A stretch of DNA of 41,352 bases, taken from the NCBI GenBank assembly GCA_003151935.1, contig PLYZ01000023.1:1-41352 (forward strand), written 5' to 3'. The notes below the pieces were generated by a model. That model was given only the letters and a program-made list of their open reading frames with translations, ran no database searches and was not told where the DNA came from. Source of the DNA: Candidatus Dormiibacterota bacterium (GTDB lineage Bacteria > Chloroflexota > Dormibacteria > Dormibacterales > Dormibacteraceae). The position numbers and the translations under genes were made by a program. Shown here piece after piece: positions 4,549-38,284 of the stretch. The first letter of the stretch is position 1; the number at the start of each line of letters is the position of its first letter.

Positions 4549-4731
4549 AGAGGCGCGGCCGGAAACCCTCGGCGAGAGATTCGGCGATCCAGGTGGTCCA
4601 GATCCGGGTGAAGCGACGAGCAGCGCAGCGAGCGCATCCGTTGATGCGTAAGCGAGAAGCACAGGAGCTGAACCCGGAGATGGGCCGCATGGGCGCCGAA
4701 GATCCGCCGAGGGCTTTTCGGCCGCGCCTCT
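4549..4731 (-). repeat. Element A, copy 1: ~183 bp repeat with long self-complementary ends
   Basis: The left end (4549-4574) begins AGAGGCGCGGCCGGAAA and the reverse complement of the right end (4705-4731) begins AGAGGCGCGGCCGAAAAG. Both then run into CCCTCGGCG, giving about 26 paired bases with one mismatch and one bulge. Inside, TTCGGCG at 4581 pairs with CGCCGAA near 4695, and a small hairpin CGCATC-loop-GATGCG lies near 4634-4649. Copy 2 (11995-12173) shares the interior closely, including a near-identical block of about 30 bases around 4678-4710. The right end overlaps the stop codon of the DtxR-family gene. The element fills the gap before the small membrane protein gene. No ORF in it looks real. 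Confidence 0.8.
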
Positions 4732-5437
4732 AGGAGGGCACCACCCACAGTTTCGCGGCCGTGTCCTGGCCCAGCGTCACCTGGCGCGCACCGGCTTTGA
4801 CGCGCACCGTACGGCCGACGCCGTCGACCTCTAAAACAGCGATCTCGGCGCCGGGAACGAGCTTGCGCTCATGCAGGTACGCGAGCAGCAGCGGCGCCTC
4901 CCGCTCCGCCACCTCGGACACCCGTGTGATCGAAGCGCGCGCACCCGCGTGCAGCTTCGTGAGCCTGACCTCGTTCGGCGCCGTTTTCGAATGGCCCGGG
5001 ATGGGGTTGCCGTGCGGGCAGGTGCGCGGACGGCCCAGCACGTCGTAGAGGCGCTTCTCCACGACATCTGAGACCGCGTGCTCCAGCCGGGCCGCCTCCT
5101 CGTCCGCCGTGACCCAGTTGAGGCCCAAGCCGTCCGTGAGCCAGCGCTCCATGATCCGGTGCCTTCTCACGATCGCCTCAGCCATGCGGCGGCCTTTGGC
5201 GGTCAGCTCGATCTCCTTGCGCGCATTGAGCCGGACCATGCCATCGCGACTCATCCGCCGCAGGCCCACCGTGACCGTGGGCCGGCTCACGCTCAGCCAG
5301 TCGGCCAGGCGCGCGCTGCGCACCGCCTCGCCCTCGTTCGCGATGTAATAGATCGCCTCGAGATAGTGCGAGACCACCTCGGAGGGGCCGCCGAGTTTGC
5401 GGGGTAAATTAGACTTAACTAATCGAAGCTTTTGCAC
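4730..5437 (-). CDS. DtxR/MntR-family metal-dependent transcriptional regulator with FeoA-like C-terminal domain
   Basis: 235 residues from a GTG at 5437. A winged HTH spans about residues 25-85 (ADWLSVSRPTVTVGLRRMSR is the recognition helix region). It is followed by the dimerisation/metal-binding domain with the family hallmark CPHGNPIPG near 141-149. A C-terminal SH3/FeoA-like domain runs from about 160 to 235. Members bind Fe2+ or Mn2+ and then repress uptake genes or activate efflux. It is divergent from a ZIP transporter 31 bp away, so metal-controlled transport is the likely job. An ATTAG-N6-CTAAT palindrome overlaps its first codons. The stop codon touches repeat element A. Fe versus Mn specificity is not decided by the sequence. 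Confidence 0.9.
   Translation of the reverse strand: MQKLRLVKSNLPRKLGGPSEVVSHYLEAIYYIANEGEAVRSARLADWLSVSRPTVTVGLRRMSRDGMVRLNARKEIELTAKGRRMAEAIVRRHRIMERWLTDGLGLNWVTADEEAARLEHAVSDVVEKRLYDVLGRPRTCPHGNPIPGHSKTAPNEVRLTKLHAGARASITRVSEVAEREAPLLLAYLHERKLVPGAEIAVLEVDGVGRTVRVKAGARQVTLGQDTAAKLWVVPS
5408..5423. promoter_or_regulatory. Candidate operator for the DtxR-family regulator
   Basis: ATTAG-ACTTAA-CTAAT is a 16 bp inverted repeat with perfect 5-base arms, AT-rich against a GC-rich background. It lies at codons 5-10 of the regulator and 46 bp before the ZIP start. A further CTAAT occurs at 5441-5445. DtxR/IdeR-type boxes are AT-rich inverted repeats with TTAG/CTAA-like arms, so autoregulation and control of the ZIP gene are inferred. 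If the true regulator start is downstream, the site would sit in its promoter. Confidence 0.45.
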
Positions 5438-11625: not shown

Positions 11626-12002
11626 TGGGTGTAGGGAGTCGTCGAGAACCGCGACGGGCACTTGGCCAGCAGCGTGGTCGCGTGGAACACGCCATCCGTA
11701 CCCAACCGTCCCTCGGCGACCACGGTGATTCCAGGCTTGAAGATGTCCGGCAGCGTCCCGGTGTAATCGACCGGTACCGAGGACGTCGCATCCTTCTCGG
11801 TGAAGGTCACGTGCAGCCCGCCGTCGGTCTTCTGAACGTCGGTCTGGACGACGCCGGCGACACGCACGTCGCCCGCGCCGGAATGCGACCGCAGCTCGCC
11901 CACGGTGAGGTAGTACTCGGTGGTTCCCCCGGAGGCGGAGTAGATGAGGTAGCCGACGCACGCGGCGACGACCAGCGCCGGGATGGACCATTTAGCAGTC
12001 AC
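11622..12002 (-). CDS. ccmE: Heme chaperone CcmE, cysteine-type (CxxxF variant)
   Basis: 126 residues from a GTG at 12002. One N-terminal anchor (WSIPALVVAACVGYLIY) precedes an OB-fold domain (YYLTVGEL, VRVAGVV, VPVDYTGTLPDIFKPG, VVAEGRL). At the heme-attachment loop the usual HDENY is replaced by CPSRF (C115, F119). This places it with the CxxxY class of CcmE known from Desulfovibrio and archaea, here with Phe in place of Tyr. It carries heme covalently between CcmC and CcmF. The start codon lies inside the right-hand arm (in minus-strand sense) of repeat element A copy 2. Confidence 0.93.
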   Translation of the reverse strand: MTAKWSIPALVVAACVGYLIYSASGGTTEYYLTVGELRSHSGAGDVRVAGVVQTDVQKTDGGLHVTFTEKDATSSVPVDYTGTLPDIFKPGITVVAEGRLGTDGVFHATTLLAKCPSRFSTTPYTQ

Positions 12003-12173
12003 GACCGGAAACCTCGGCGAGAGATTCGGTGGCCAGGTGGTCCAGATGCTAGGCGCGGCCGAGCACCGGAGCGAGCGCATCCGTTGATGCGTGAGCGAGG
12101 AGCGGAGGTCGCAACGACGCAGATGGGCCGCATGGGCGCCGAAGATCCGTCGAGGTGTTCCGGCCGGGACTGC
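11995..12173 (-). repeat. Element A, copy 2: ~179 bp repeat with self-complementary ends, between tlpA and ccmE
   Basis: The left end (11995-12019) reads GCAGTCACGACCGGAA then ACCTCGGCG. The reverse complement of the right end (12148-12173) reads GCAGTCCCGGCCGGAA then CACCTCGACG. That gives about 22 paired bases with a few mismatches and a bulge. The outermost bases differ from copy 1 (AGAGGCG) but again match each other. The interior is strongly conserved with copy 1, including the CGCATC/GATGCG hairpin (near 12086-12101) and the block at 12121-12155. It fills the gap from 5 bp after the tlpA stop to within the ccmE start. Confidence 0.8.
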
Positions 12174-15297: not shown

Positions 15298-15490
15298 ATG
15301 AGGGAAAACCGGGCGGTTTTCCCTGCGCGCAGGCGCGAGCAGGATGTGACCTACTGATTGCATCGGCCGGCCGGCTCCGCCAGCGGGCCTGCTCCCATTC
15401 CCCGGGATCGGACTTTCTGAATCATCACTCCCCGCCACGCAAGGTGGCCTTCAGGCACGCCGGGGGACGGCCGGAGTAAATCCGGCCTAC
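15298..15490 (+). repeat. Element B, copy 1: ~193 bp structured repeat
   Basis: It starts with a perfect hairpin AGGGAAAACC-GGGC-GGTTTTCCCT (15301-15324). GAGCAGG (15337-15343) pairs with CCTGCTC (15387-15393) around an inner GC hairpin. It ends with GGCCGGA-GTAAA-TCCGGCC (15469-15487) followed by TAC. Copy 2 is at 29358-29551 in the same orientation. It occupies the divergent gap between the GGDEF-like gene and rarA and reaches 22 bp from the rarA start, so it must share space with the promoters. No ORF was found in it. Confidence 0.8.
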
Positions 15491-15511
15491 AGGCCACGTC
15501 ACAATTCGCAT

Positions 15512-19689: not shown

Positions 19690-21333
19690 TCAAACGACCG
19701 CCTGTTCGGTATAGATGCCGAACACCTCGATCAGCGTGTTCATGATCTCGCCTTCGGTGGCGTAAGCCCGAACCGACTCGAGGATGTAGGGCATGAGGTT
19801 GTCCGTGCCCGCCGCGGCCTTGCGCAAGCTCGTGAGCGCCTTCGAGCACCTCGCCTGGTCACGTTTCCTTCGCACCTCGCGAACGCGTGCGACCTGCTCG
19901 CTCTCGAGCTTCGGGTCGATGCGCAGAATCTCGATCGGGACCTCTTCATCGACGGTGAAGTCGTTGACGCCGATCATGATCCGCCGCTTCTCTTCGAGCT
20001 CCCGCTGGTACTGGAAAGCGGCGTCGGCGATCTCCTTCTGGAAGAAGCTCGCCTCGATCGCGGGAATGACCCCGCCGAGGTCTTCGATTCTCTTGAAGTA
20101 CTTCTCCGCCTGTCTCTCCATCTCATCGGTCAGCGCCTCGATGAAATAGCTGCCCCCGAGCGGGTCGACCGTGTTGGCCACTCCACTCTCGTACGCGAGC
20201 AGCTGCTGCGTCCGAAGCGCGATCCGCGCGGATTTGTCTGTGGGCAGCGCGAGCACCTCGTCCATCGCGTTGGTGTGCAGGGACTGCGTCCCGCCCAGGA
20301 CCGCCGCGAGCGCCTCGATCGCGGTGCGCGCGATGTTCAGCTCCGGCTGCTGCGCCGTCAGCGAAACACCGGCGGTTTGCGTGTGGAATCTCAGCTTCCA
20401 CGATCGCTCCGACTGCGCCCCGTAGCGCTCTCGCATCCATCGTGCCCAGATGCGCCGCGCCGCGCGGAACTTCGCGATCTCCTCGAAGAAATCGATGTGG
20501 GCGTCGAAGAAAAATGAAAGTCGCGGAGCGAAGTCGTCGATGCGCATGCCCCTCTCAAGGCAGGCGTCGACGTATGCCATGCCGTCCGCGAGCGTGAACG
20601 CGAGCTCCTGGACGGCGGTGGAGCCAGCCTCCCGGATGTGATAGCCCGAGATGGAAATCGTGTTCCACTGCGGGACCTCTTTGGCGCAGTACTCGATGGA
20701 GTCGACGACCAGGCGCATCGAAGGGGCCGGCGGAAAGATGAACTCTTTCTGCGCGATGAACTCTTTCAGGATGTCGTTCTGCAAAGTGCCGCCGAGCCGC
20801 GATGCCGGCACGCCCTGTTCCTCGGCGACCGCGATGTACATGCAGAGCAAAATCGCCGCAGGCGAGTTGATGGTCATCGACGTGGTGATGTCGGCCAGCG
20901 GGATGCCGGCGAACAGCGTCTCCATGTCGGCCAGCGAGTCGATCGCGACCCCGCAGTGGCCGATCTCTCCGCGGCTCGTCGGTGCATCCGAATCCTGTCC
21001 CATGAGCGTGGGCATGTCAAAGGCGACCGATAGCCCGGTCTGGCCGTTCGCCAGCAGGTACTTGTAGCGGCGGTTGGTCTCCTCCGCGGTGGCAAAGCCG
21101 GAGAACTGACGCATGGTCCAGAGCCGGCCGCGGTACCCGCTCGGATGGATCCCCCGCGTGTAGGGAAACTGGCCGGGCACCTCTTCCGGCCGGCGGGGAA
21201 GGTCGTCGGTCGTGTACAGCGGCTGGAGCGGGATCCCCGAGATCGTCGAGGTCTCGATGCCGTCGTCCCGCACGGGACTGCTTTCGAAATCCTCCTTCCA
21301 GGCCTGTTTGGGGTCGCGAGCTCGGACTTTCAT
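19690..21333 (-). CDS. icmA: Isobutyryl-CoA mutase-type large subunit (B12-dependent acyl-CoA mutase)
   Basis: 547 residues from an ATG at 21333. It is a TIM-barrel acyl-CoA mutase domain without its own B12 domain. The two substrate-defining positions, Tyr89 and Arg207 in methylmalonyl-CoA mutase, are F77 (in RQFSGF) and Q195 (in EFIAQKEF). Phe/Gln is the known pair of isobutyryl-CoA mutase. The invariant His is H232 in [25 protein letters not shown] is a family block. It is predicted to interconvert isobutyryl-CoA and n-butyryl-CoA. It lies in an operon with MeaB upstream and the B12 subunit downstream. A hairpin repeat sits directly before the ATG and its 3' arm is the only SD. Confidence 0.85.
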
Positions 21334-23837: not shown

Positions 23838-24326
23838 TCATGGCGTCGGCGTGCTGTTCGTCGCTGAGGTGATCACTCCGGAAAGAATCAGGAAGAACCA
23901 GCCGACGCTAGCGACGAAGCCGACGATCCCCAGCACCAGGCCGACCACCGCCAGGGTTCCTCCACCCAGCGCCCCTCCACTCGACGCGATCCGCTGGCGT
24001 GAGATGAACCCCATGATCGCCGCGGTCGGGCCCAGCACGATGCCGAGGCACGCCACGGTGCACACCAGGGAAGCAATGCCGATCACCAGCGAGGCGACCG
24101 CGAGCCCGTCATTTCGGGGCGCGGCATAACCGGCCGACATGGGCGCGTATCCGCCAGGGGGCGGCGGTACATAGGAACCGCCCATCGGCGGCGGTGGAGG
24201 CATTCCACCTCCCCCCATCGGTGGCGGCGGCGGTGGAGGCATTCCGCCCCCGCCTGTCGGTGGTGGCGGAGGAGGTGGTGGCGGAGGATACCCTCCAGCC
24301 GGCGGCGGTGGGGGCAAGTCCGACAT
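23838..24326 (-). CDS. DUF4190-domain membrane protein with proline-rich N-terminus
   Basis: 162 residues. The ATG at 24326 has a strong SD (AAGGAGG) 8 bases upstream. Residues 1-70 are Pro/Gly/Met-rich with two Pro runs of about ten. Two membrane helices follow, joined by a short polar loop (DGLAVASLVIGIASLVCTV and LAVVGLVLGIVGFVASVGWF, with ISRQRIASSGG between), the DUF4190 plan. Function unknown. It sits 12 bp downstream of the DUF4013 gene and in the same run as a second, broken DUF4190 gene. Confidence 0.85.
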   Translation of the reverse strand: MSDLPPPPPAGGYPPPPPPPPPPTGGGGMPPPPPPPMGGGGMPPPPPMGGSYVPPPPGGYAPMSAGYAAPRNDGLAVASLVIGIASLVCTVACLGIVLGPTAAIMGFISRQRIASSGGALGGGTLAVVGLVLGIVGFVASVGWFFLILSGVITSATNSTPTP

Positions 24327-29357: not shown

Positions 29358-29551
29358 ATGAGCGGAACCCTCGGCGGTTTCCGCTGCGCGCAGGGCGGCG
29401 AGCAGGATGGGATTTACTGATTGCATCGGCGCGTTGGCTTCGCCAAGGCGCCTGCTCACCTTCCCCGGGATCGGACTGTCGAATTACTCACTCCTAACGA
29501 TGTGAGCGACACGAATGCCCGCTGGGGACGGCCGGAGTAAATCCGGCCTAC
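29358..29551 (+). repeat. Element B, copy 2: ~194 bp structured repeat
   Basis: Same order as copy 1. The first hairpin has arms AGCGGAACC and GGTTTCCGCT (29361-29385), paired with a one-base bulge and changed on both arms relative to copy 1. GAGCAGG (29400-29406) pairs with CCTGCTC (29451-29457) around TTGGC-TTC-GCCAA. The terminal GGCCGGA-GTAAA-TCCGGCC is identical to copy 1. It lies in the convergent gap between the propeller and dehydrogenase genes, so it is not a 5' leader here. The middle (29482-29520) is the least conserved part. Confidence 0.8.
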
Positions 29552-29571
29552 TTGCCGCGCGGCTTGGGGAC

Positions 29572-36716: not shown

Positions 36717-38284
36717 CAGGCCGCCTCCCCCGGCCGATACTCGCCGAACACGCCGCGCAGGACCGAGCAGCACTCGCCGATCGTCACGTAGTCGGCCAGG
36801 GCGGCCTTCAGCGGGATCATCAGGTTTGCGGTTCCGCGCGCCGCGCGCTCGAGCTCGGCGAGGTGACGTTCGACGAGCGCCTTAGGCCGGCGCGCGCGCA
36901 GCTGCTCGAGGGCGCGCGTCTGTTCTGCCTGCTGGCGCGGGCTGATCTTCATGATCTCGACGGCTTCGGCGCCTGTTTCCGAATATCGGTTGACCCCCAC
37001 CACGACACGCTCGCCGGACTCGACTCGCCGCTGCAGCCGGTATGCGCTGTCTGCGATTCGGCGCTGCGTCCAGCCGCTCTCGATGCATGCCACAGCACCT
37101 CCCAGCTCGTCCACCTCGGCCATGATCGACTGCGCCTCCTCCTCCACGCGGTCCGTGAGGTTCTCGACGTAGTAGGAACCGCCGAGCGGGTCGGCGACCA
37201 GTGGCACGGCCGTCTCGTAGCCGATCACCTGCTGCGTGCGCAGGGCAAGCTCGGCCGCCCTCTCCGAAGGCAGCCCCAGCGCCTCGTCATACCCGTTGGT
37301 GTGCAGCGACTGCGTGCCACCCAGCACCGCGCTCATCGCCTCGAGCGTGGTCCGCACCACGTTGTTCAGCGGCTGCTGGGCAGTGAGCGTGACGCCACCG
37401 GTCTGGGTGTGGAACCGAAGAGCCAGAGACCTCTGGTCGGCGGCGTGAAAGCGGTCGCGCATGACGCGCGCCCACATCCGCCTGGCCGCGCGGAATTTCG
37501 CCACCTCCTCGAAGAAGTCCATGTGCGCGGCGAAGAAAAAGGAGAGATGCGGGCCGAAGTCGTCCACCGAGAGCCCGGCCGCCTGTGCCGCCTCGACGTA
37601 CGCGATCGCATGGCTGAGCGTGAACGCGATCTCCTCGGCCGCGGTCGAGCCGGCCTCCCTGATGTGGTAGCCGGAGATCGAGATCGTGTTCCAACCTGGC
37701 AGCGAGCGACCGCAGTAAGCGAAGAGGTCCGTGACGAGGCGCATCGAAGGCTTCGGCGGAAAGATGTACGTCCCCCGGGCCGCGTACTCCTTGAGGATGT
37801 CGTTCTGCGTTGTGCCCGTGATCTTCTCGGGAGGGCAGCCTTGTTTCTCCGCCACCAGCTGATAGAGCAGCAGCAGCATTGCAGCGGTGGCGTTGATGGT
37901 CATCGACGTCGAAACCCGCTCGAGTGGAATGTCCTTGAACAGGATCTCCATGTCCTCTAGCGAGTCGATGGCAACGCCCACCTTCCCGACCTCGCCGTTG
38001 GCCATCGGGTCGTCCGAGTCATAGCCGATCTGGGTGGGGAGATCGAATGCGACCGAGAGTCCGGTCTGGCCCTGCTTCAGCAGAAACCGGTACCGCTCGT
38101 TCGACTCCGCAGCCGAGCCGAACCCGGCGTACTGGCGCATGGTCCACAGGCGGCCCCGGTACATGTCCTTGTGAATGCCGCGCGTAAACGGGAAATCGCC
38201 CGGCGGCGGCTCCTCGGCGCGTCTGTCCTCGACCGAGTACACCGGCTTGAGCGGCAGGCCACTGTCGTTCTGGACATCGGTCAT
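36716..38284 (-). CDS. mcmA: Methylmalonyl-CoA mutase large (catalytic) subunit
   Basis: 522 residues. The ATG at 38284 overlaps the epimerase stop (ATGA). The specificity pair matches methylmalonyl-CoA mutase: Y52 in RQYAGF (Tyr89) and R170 in EYAARGTY (Arg207). [10 protein letters not shown] holds the invariant His. TNGYDEALGLPS replaces the usual TN(A/S)xDEALALPT. No B12 domain is fused or adjacent, so it needs a separate small subunit. It isomerises (R)-methylmalonyl-CoA to succinyl-CoA. Flanked by mce and pccB in one operon. Confidence 0.92.
   Translation of the reverse strand: MTDVQNDSGLPLKPVYSVEDRRAEEPPPGDFPFTRGIHKDMYRGRLWTMRQYAGFGSAAESNERYRFLLKQGQTGLSVAFDLPTQIGYDSDDPMANGEVGKVGVAIDSLEDMEILFKDIPLERVSTSMTINATAAMLLLLYQLVAEKQGCPPEKITGTTQNDILKEYAARGTYIFPPKPSMRLVTDLFAYCGRSLPGWNTISISGYHIREAGSTAAEEIAFTLSHAIAYVEAAQAAGLSVDDFGPHLSFFFAAHMDFFEEVAKFRAARRMWARVMRDRFHAADQRSLALRFHTQTGGVTLTAQQPLNNVVRTTLEAMSAVLGGTQSLHTNGYDEALGLPSERAAELALRTQQVIGYETAVPLVADPLGGSYYVENLTDRVEEEAQSIMAEVDELGGAVACIESGWTQRRIADSAYRLQRRVESGERVVVGVNRYSETGAEAVEIMKISPRQQAEQTRALEQLRARRPKALVERHLAELERAARGTANLMIPLKAALADYVTIGECCSVLRGVFGEYRPGEAA

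What the first reader, a model, noticed from the sequence alone, without database searches (positions are those of the whole stretch)
4549..4731. Element A: ~180 bp repeat whose long ends pair, with changes on both arms between copies
Two copies (4549-4731 and 11995-12173) share a conserved interior. In each copy the outer ~25 bases of both ends are self-complementary, but the outermost bases differ between copies (AGAGGCG versus GCAGTC) while still pairing within each copy. A simple insertion with fixed terminal repeats would keep the same ends. Paired change points to selection on a folded structure, or to a mobile element whose ends are corrected against each other. Both copies fill the gap in front of a minus-strand gene.
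Basis: partly seen in the sequence, partly recalled or inferred. Interest (0 to 1): 0.75.

Follow-up and report, generated by a model that had tools for sequence, protein, structure and literature searches.

The report
Jumping hairpin with self-matching ends
These are two copies of a short mobile DNA element, found dozens of times in related uncultured soil bacteria, that folds end to end into one long hairpin and keeps its two ends matched to each other while those ends change from copy to copy, which known short mobile repeats with fixed end sequences are not described as doing.

Summary
The window holds two copies of a ~180-nt element that folds along its whole length into one rod (RNA z -13 and -10). 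The host genome has at least 19 full copies; relatives in Candidatus Dormibacterota and other families of the phylum have more. Among 105 copies, 56 of 63 pairs show changes on both sides (1108 cells; 301 in shuffles). The most conserved letters are unpaired G and A of regularly spaced tandem G.A loops.

The element is mobile. In a recent burst of near-identical copies, sites in a 91-94% identical relative are empty, with one TA where the filled site has TA at both ends. Most copies abut stop codons.

The outer 25 bp belongs to the locus and drifts by paired changes even between orthologous copies; the core is homogenised within genomes. G.T pairs exceed A.C 12:1 on one strand, whichever way neighbouring genes run, so it is not a 3'UTR hairpin or terminator.

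No Rfam family matches. No tested mobiliser (Y1, IS630 DDE, IS110, reverse transcriptase) tracks the element. Best reading: a new variant of bacterial hairpin MITE whose ends are defined by structure, not sequence. Whether the strand acts as RNA or single-stranded DNA is open.

The parts
4549..4731 (+). Element copy 1, whole hairpin; the + strand is the folding strand
   Evidence: RNA fold -132.4 (z -13.1) against -106.2 on the other strand; DNA parameters -68.8 against -59.7; empty site in same-genus genome G002
4549..4572 (+). Left outer arm of copy 1
   Evidence: Pairs with 4707-4731; equivalent columns change on both sides in helices 1-3 of A3
4573..4706 (+). Conserved core of copy 1 with the tandem G.A internal loops (for example 4578-4579 with 4701-4702)
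   Evidence: Invariant and near-invariant columns
4707..4731 (+). Right outer arm of copy 1; its end overlaps the TAG stop (CTA, 4730-4732) of the minus-strand gene 4730-5437
   Evidence: Sequence; ORF list; context
11995..12173 (+). Element copy 2, whole hairpin
   Evidence: RNA fold -113.9 (z -10.2) against -84.5 on the other strand; DNA parameters -55.3 against -43.9; no element in G001 and most of the family; G002 keeps only a small end hairpin
12018..12149 (+). Conserved core of copy 2
   Evidence: Alignments A1 and A3
4730..5437 (-). Neighbour: iron-dependent repressor with FeoA domain (DtxR type); its stop abuts copy 1
   Evidence: Pfam PF02742, PF04023, PF01325
9679..11991 (-). Neighbour: CcmF-like cytochrome c assembly protein, starting 4 nt left of copy 2
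   Evidence: Pfam PF16327, PF01578
12178..12837 (-). Neighbour: thioredoxin-like (AhpC/TSA, redoxin) protein, ending 5 nt right of copy 2
   Evidence: Pfam PF00578, PF08534

Best explanation
A family of non-coding, non-autonomous mobile elements of about 175-225 bp (MITE-like). Shown: a copy inserts at a TA dinucleotide, usually the TA of a stop codon, and the TA is found at both ends afterwards. Shown: the element is one quasi-palindrome, and one fixed strand folds into a long rod with about five regularly spaced tandem G.A internal loops. Shown: after insertion the outer 25-bp arms stay with their locus and drift by paired substitutions, while cores are more alike within a genome than arms are. 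Inferred: the folded strand is selected, most likely as an RNA made from the element's own strand; the core loops form the binding surface for a protein and the arms only have to pair. Inferred: gene conversion spreads core versions between copies. Inferred: an unidentified TA-specific transposase supplied in trans moves the element, recognising the hairpin or core rather than a fixed terminal repeat.
For: Copies: at least 19 full-length in the own genome; 28 of 41 near relatives by BLAST; 24 of 201 genomes across the phylum by covariance model, in families f1, f2, f3, f21 and f32. Mobility: empty sites; a recent burst in G004 whose orthologous sites in G017 hold a single TA; TA within a 5-nt window at the left end in 65 of 140 copies, right end 65, both 37, against 8, 8 and 1 in control windows. 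Structure: 56 of 63 pairs with both-side changes, 1108 double cells against 301 shuffled and 120-191 slid, 94.9% of cells paired. Unpaired loop G and A columns are 0.90-1.00 conserved at most loop positions. Strand: G.T 445 against A.C 37 overall; 92:11 and 80:21 without G.U-rich columns, and 49:5 and 43:6 even where both neighbouring genes run the other way. Locus-level maintenance: 14 orthologous pairs, arms, 49 double Watson-Crick changes, 1 double mismatch, 12.3 doubles expected if sides were independent. Core and arm uncoupling: L113 core 0.97 to L071 in the same genome with arms 0.31, but core 0.90 and arms 0.73 to its ortholog L229; L016/L076 core 0.70 with arms 0.88.
Against: No transcript data, and no conserved promoter was seen, since the flanks are simply the ends of host genes. 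No mobiliser was identified. Double Watson-Crick changes outnumber G.U intermediates between orthologs (49 against 17), more than a simple stepwise path would suggest. A subfamily with GCGATCACGG-type ends lacks TA and has target-like letters at the left end, so the TA rule is not universal.
Confidence: 0.6

Rival explanations
1. The folded strand matters as single-stranded DNA, not RNA: a transposition enzyme recognises the hairpin in an exposed strand during replication, as with attC sites or IS200/IS605 ends.
For: G.T over A.C polarity and stable tandem G.A also apply to DNA hairpins; DNA parameters show the same polarity (-68.8 against -59.7); the folding strand is antisense to both neighbouring genes in 63 of 126 contexts against 28 sense, so read-through rarely makes that RNA.
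Against: Y1 (HUH) transposases are absent from all but one of the element-bearing genomes searched, where the single hit (G025) is a below-cutoff fragment, and frequent in G013, where BLAST finds no element. A TA duplication points to a double-strand DDE-type reaction. Orthologous, non-moving copies also keep pairing.
Confidence: 0.25
2. The arms are kept complementary by DNA processes alone (template switching or quasi-palindrome repair copies one arm onto the other), without selection.
For: Double changes exceed single ones between orthologs and 36% of arm doubles are transversion pairs; apex deletions show palindrome instability (L115, L028, G002 site 2).
Against: The conserved mismatches (tandem G.A, A.A) would be corrected away but are the best conserved letters; such repair has no strand preference, yet G.T:A.C is 12:1.
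Confidence: 0.1
3. An ordinary TA-specific (IS630/Tc1-mariner type) MITE such as ERIC, Correia or RUP, with degenerate terminal repeats and no special biology.
For: TA duplication, size, end-to-end hairpin and intergenic position match that class (PMC2229807).
Against: The terminal repeats are unrelated between copies with 97% identical cores; IS630 DDE domains were not found in G000, G001, G002, G004, G017, G020, G220, G224 or G228; orthologous copies do not simply decay but compensate.
Confidence: 0.2
4. A 3'UTR hairpin or transcription terminator of the host genes.
For: Most copies abut a stop codon.
Against: The folding polarity does not follow the direction of the neighbouring gene (49:5 where both genes run opposite, 14:2 where both run with it), and orientation is biased against the sense arrangement (63 against 28, p 0.0003). 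TA scarcity in a 66% G+C genome can account for stop-codon placement.
Confidence: 0.05
5. The arms are copied from the target at insertion (foldback synthesis), so each insertion brings new matching ends.
For: Some empty sites resemble one arm (L229/L101, L069 GTGCTCA, G232 site 2 with a 10-bp repeat and inverted copy). Cores of 97% identity carry unrelated arms.
Against: In the clearest recent insertions the empty site has only TA and no arm, and all seven burst copies share arms. Remnants left by deletion explain L101 as well.
Confidence: 0.1

Closest known systems
Bacterial hairpin MITEs with TA ends: ERIC/IRU, Correia/NEMIS, RUP, RPE, RU-1 to RU-3 (review PMC2229807)
   Same: About 100-200 bp, no gene, 5'-3' end pairing into one long stem, TA at the ends, intergenic, many copies
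   Different: Those are described with fixed terminal inverted repeats (RUP with an IS630 partner); here the ends differ freely and covary, the core carries conserved tandem G.A loops, and no IS630 partner was found
REP/REPIN elements with RAYT (Y1) transposases (PMC3116915, PMC2817692)
   Same: Short palindromic intergenic mobile DNA with a hairpin fold
   Different: REPs are far shorter (own knowledge); Y1 transposases are absent from nearly all carrier genomes tested; TA duplication here
Integron attC sites (own knowledge)
   Same: Structure-recognised hairpins with variable sequence and one active strand
   Different: No fixed core sites at the ends and no cassette array; attC was not searched as a family beyond Rfam
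Candidate structured RNAs of the Weinberg type, for example Chloroflexi-1 (PMC2864571) in Rfam
   Same: Candidate structured RNA supported by covariation, reported from a member of the same phylum
   Different: No Rfam family matches, even at permissive thresholds

Membership tests
Bacterial TA-type MITE (ERIC/Correia/RUP class) | Short, gene-free, multi-copy, demonstrably mobile | tested here: met
   At least 19 copies, filled and empty sites
Bacterial TA-type MITE (ERIC/Correia/RUP class) | TA target duplication | tested here: met
   Recent burst copies against G017 empty sites; not universal, GCGATCACGG-type copies lack it
Bacterial TA-type MITE (ERIC/Correia/RUP class) | Conserved terminal inverted repeat sequence shared by copies | tested here: not met
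   Arm identity falls to about 0.25-0.4 between some copies with cores of 0.95 or more
Bacterial TA-type MITE (ERIC/Correia/RUP class) | Partner IS630-type transposase in the genome | tested here: not met
   DDE_3 found in only 2 of the element-bearing genomes searched (G006, G034), absent in G000 and G004; genomes are drafts
REP/RAYT or IS200/IS605-derived | Y1 transposase present | tested here: not met
   Absent in carriers apart from one below-cutoff fragment in G025; above the cut-off only in G013, where BLAST finds no element
IS110 / bridge RNA systems | DEDD recombinase present | tested here: not met
   Present in 6 carriers but absent in G000, G001, G004, G017, G020, G220, G224
Retroelement (group II intron, retron, DGR) | Reverse transcriptase present | tested here: not met
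   RVT_1 absent in most carriers including G000, G002, G004
Known Rfam RNA | Covariance-model match | tested here: not met
Conserved structured RNA | Covariation beyond shuffled and slid controls | tested here: met
Conserved structured RNA | Transcribed | not testable with these tools
   No RNA data

The most novel reading that the evidence does not exclude
A mobile element family whose ends are specified by base pairing rather than sequence, with a modular core that spreads between copies while each locus keeps its own coevolving arms; it acts as a protein-binding RNA or single-stranded DNA rod and is moved by an unknown TA-specific enzyme that reads shape.
Probability: 0.35. Interest if true: 0.85.

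Novelty: new variant of a known kind. Interest (0 to 1): 0.66.

Why it matters
Short mobile repeats are normally identified by a fixed terminal repeat that matches a parent transposase. Here the ends are free to change as long as they pair, copies compensate in place, and no usual mobiliser tracks the element. That makes two questions testable: how a transposition system can recognise shape instead of sequence, and whether a dispersed repeat is kept as a functional nucleic acid. It would also be a first repeat or RNA family of this kind for Dormibacterota, soil bacteria that are still poorly known (the last point is inference).

Tried and rejected
Rfam at gathering and permissive thresholds: nothing. 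Y1, DDE_3, RVT_1 and IS110 domains as mobilisers: none tracks the element. Viral contigs: no match to the core pattern. Arms copied from the target: looked attractive in L229/L101 and G232, but rejected as the main explanation after the clean TA-only empty sites of the burst. Terminator or 3'UTR role: rejected by polarity being independent of gene direction. A first count of single changes used a joint fold of both sequences and was biased against A.C; it was replaced by folds of one sequence at a time (one search replaced). Literature searches found no description of this family.

Full report
Observation. Both copies exist at the stated coordinates. They fold end to end, not only at the ends: -132.4 and -113.9 kcal/mol, z -13.1 and -10.2. 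The + strand folds better than the - strand in both, also with DNA parameters.

Extent. BLAST with copy 1 finds about 20 places in the own 2.94-Mb genome, of which 19 are full-length hairpins and others are diverged or apex-deleted. Of 41 near relatives, 28 have matches. A covariance model from 19 own copies matches in 24 of 201 genomes sampled across the phylum, in five families, with 10 or more copies in several genomes of a distant family, f21. A core pattern in named genomes hits almost only MAGs labelled Candidatus Dormibacterota (Dormibacteraeota) or soil Chloroflexi.

Structure. In 105 aligned copies, 94.9% of cells pair, 56 of 63 pairs have changes on both sides, and 1108 cells carry double changes against 300.8 in shuffles and 120-191 when partners are slid. 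The outer two helices (14 pairs) vary in every pair. Conversely the unpaired letters of the internal loops, mainly tandem G.A, are 0.90-1.00 conserved at most positions. This pattern, free pairs and fixed loops, is what selection on a fold gives. Perfecting a palindrome by repair would remove the loops.

Strand. Wobble pairs on the folding strand exceed the A.C mismatches that the other strand would show as wobble: 445 to 37 in all, 92:11 in arms and 80:21 in core after dropping columns rich in G.U. The bias is the same where both neighbouring genes run against the element (49:5 arms, 43:6 core) as where they run with it (14:2, 15:7). So the fold is not maintained in the neighbours' mRNA. Sense arrangements are rarer than antisense ones (28 against 63).

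Mobility. At site 1, same-genus G002 lacks the element (left flank to 4547, right flank from 4724 rejoined). At site 2, G001 and most of the family lack it, and G002 has only a small hairpin of the ends, best read as an apex deletion. More than a dozen other filled/empty pairs exist. In G004 seven copies are nearly identical. Five of their sites were matched in G017, four at 91-94% identity and one at 75%. The two cleanest read gct-A-gagctc and gct-A-gccgcc, that is one TA where the filled site has TA at the left and TA (or CA) at the right. TA lies at the ends far more often than in control windows (65, 65 and 37 against 8, 8 and 1 of 140). The element usually abuts a stop codon; in a genome with 12.7 TA per kb and TAG/TAA as 20 of 33 coding-like stops in the window, that follows from a TA target plus survival outside genes (inference).

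Arms and core have different histories. L113 and L071 lie in one assembly (PLJM01): cores 0.97 identical, arms 0.31. L113 and its ortholog L229 in G001: core 0.90, arms 0.73. L016 and L076 at one site: core 0.70, arms 0.88. L048 shares the arms of L010 and L114 but has another apical module. Cores therefore appear to move between copies (gene conversion, inferred), while arms stay with the locus.

Change in place. Across 14 orthologous pairs, in the arms, 49 double changes are Watson-Crick to Watson-Crick, one is broken, and 12.3 doubles are expected if the sides changed independently; single changes go to G.T 17 times and to A.C 4 times (counts in both directions). Doubles are scattered along the arms; 16 of 25 are transition pairs. 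In the burst, arm position 8 shows T-A, T.G and C-G in sister copies.

Mobiliser. Y1_Tnp is absent from the tested carriers except for one below-cutoff fragment in G025, and present 11 times in G013, where neither BLAST nor the model finds an element. DDE_3 (IS630), RVT_1 and IS110 DEDD domains are each missing from most carriers, including G000 and burst genome G004. The genomes are drafts, so a missed gene is possible.

Known relatives. The closest class is bacterial MITEs such as ERIC, Correia/NEMIS and RUP, which are 100-200 bp with TA ends, and whose mobilising enzymes are mostly unproven (PMC2229807). The present family meets size, hairpin, TA and mobility, but fails the conserved-terminal-repeat and IS630-partner features. 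It is therefore described as a variant of that kind, not as a member of any named family. Rfam has nothing.

Verdict. What is inferred is the form in which the folding strand acts (RNA favoured, single-stranded DNA possible), its partner, and the mobiliser.

Noticed in passing
window 15335-15498 and 29398-29559: A second repeat pair in the window (97 nt at 80% and 36 nt at 92% identity), unrelated to this element; folds into several hairpins rather than one rod.
   Followed up: partly
L192 about 2370-2620 (G232, orthologous to window site 2): An independent insertion of a diverged hairpin at the same intergenic site, flanked by a 10-bp direct repeat GATCACGACG and with an inverted copy of the left target flank in its right arm.
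   Followed up: partly
L115 1143-1259, L028 about 1465-1550, L191 about 2425-2455 (G002 site 2): Copies that have lost the apex of the hairpin but keep the paired ends, as expected of palindrome instability.
   Followed up: partly
L048, L050, L086; L104, L237; L274-L278: Longer versions (200-225 nt) with shared extra structured modules at the apex or as a side hairpin, at unrelated sites.
   Followed up: partly
G013 (L306-L317): A genome of the same family with 11 Y1 transposase matches and no copy of the element found.
   Followed up: no
window 24186-24263: Two head-to-tail 39-nt repeats (87% identical) inside a minus-strand ORF.
   Followed up: no
window 20187-20790 and 37213-37816: A likely paralogous gene pair 17 kb apart (72-80% identity).
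   Followed up: no
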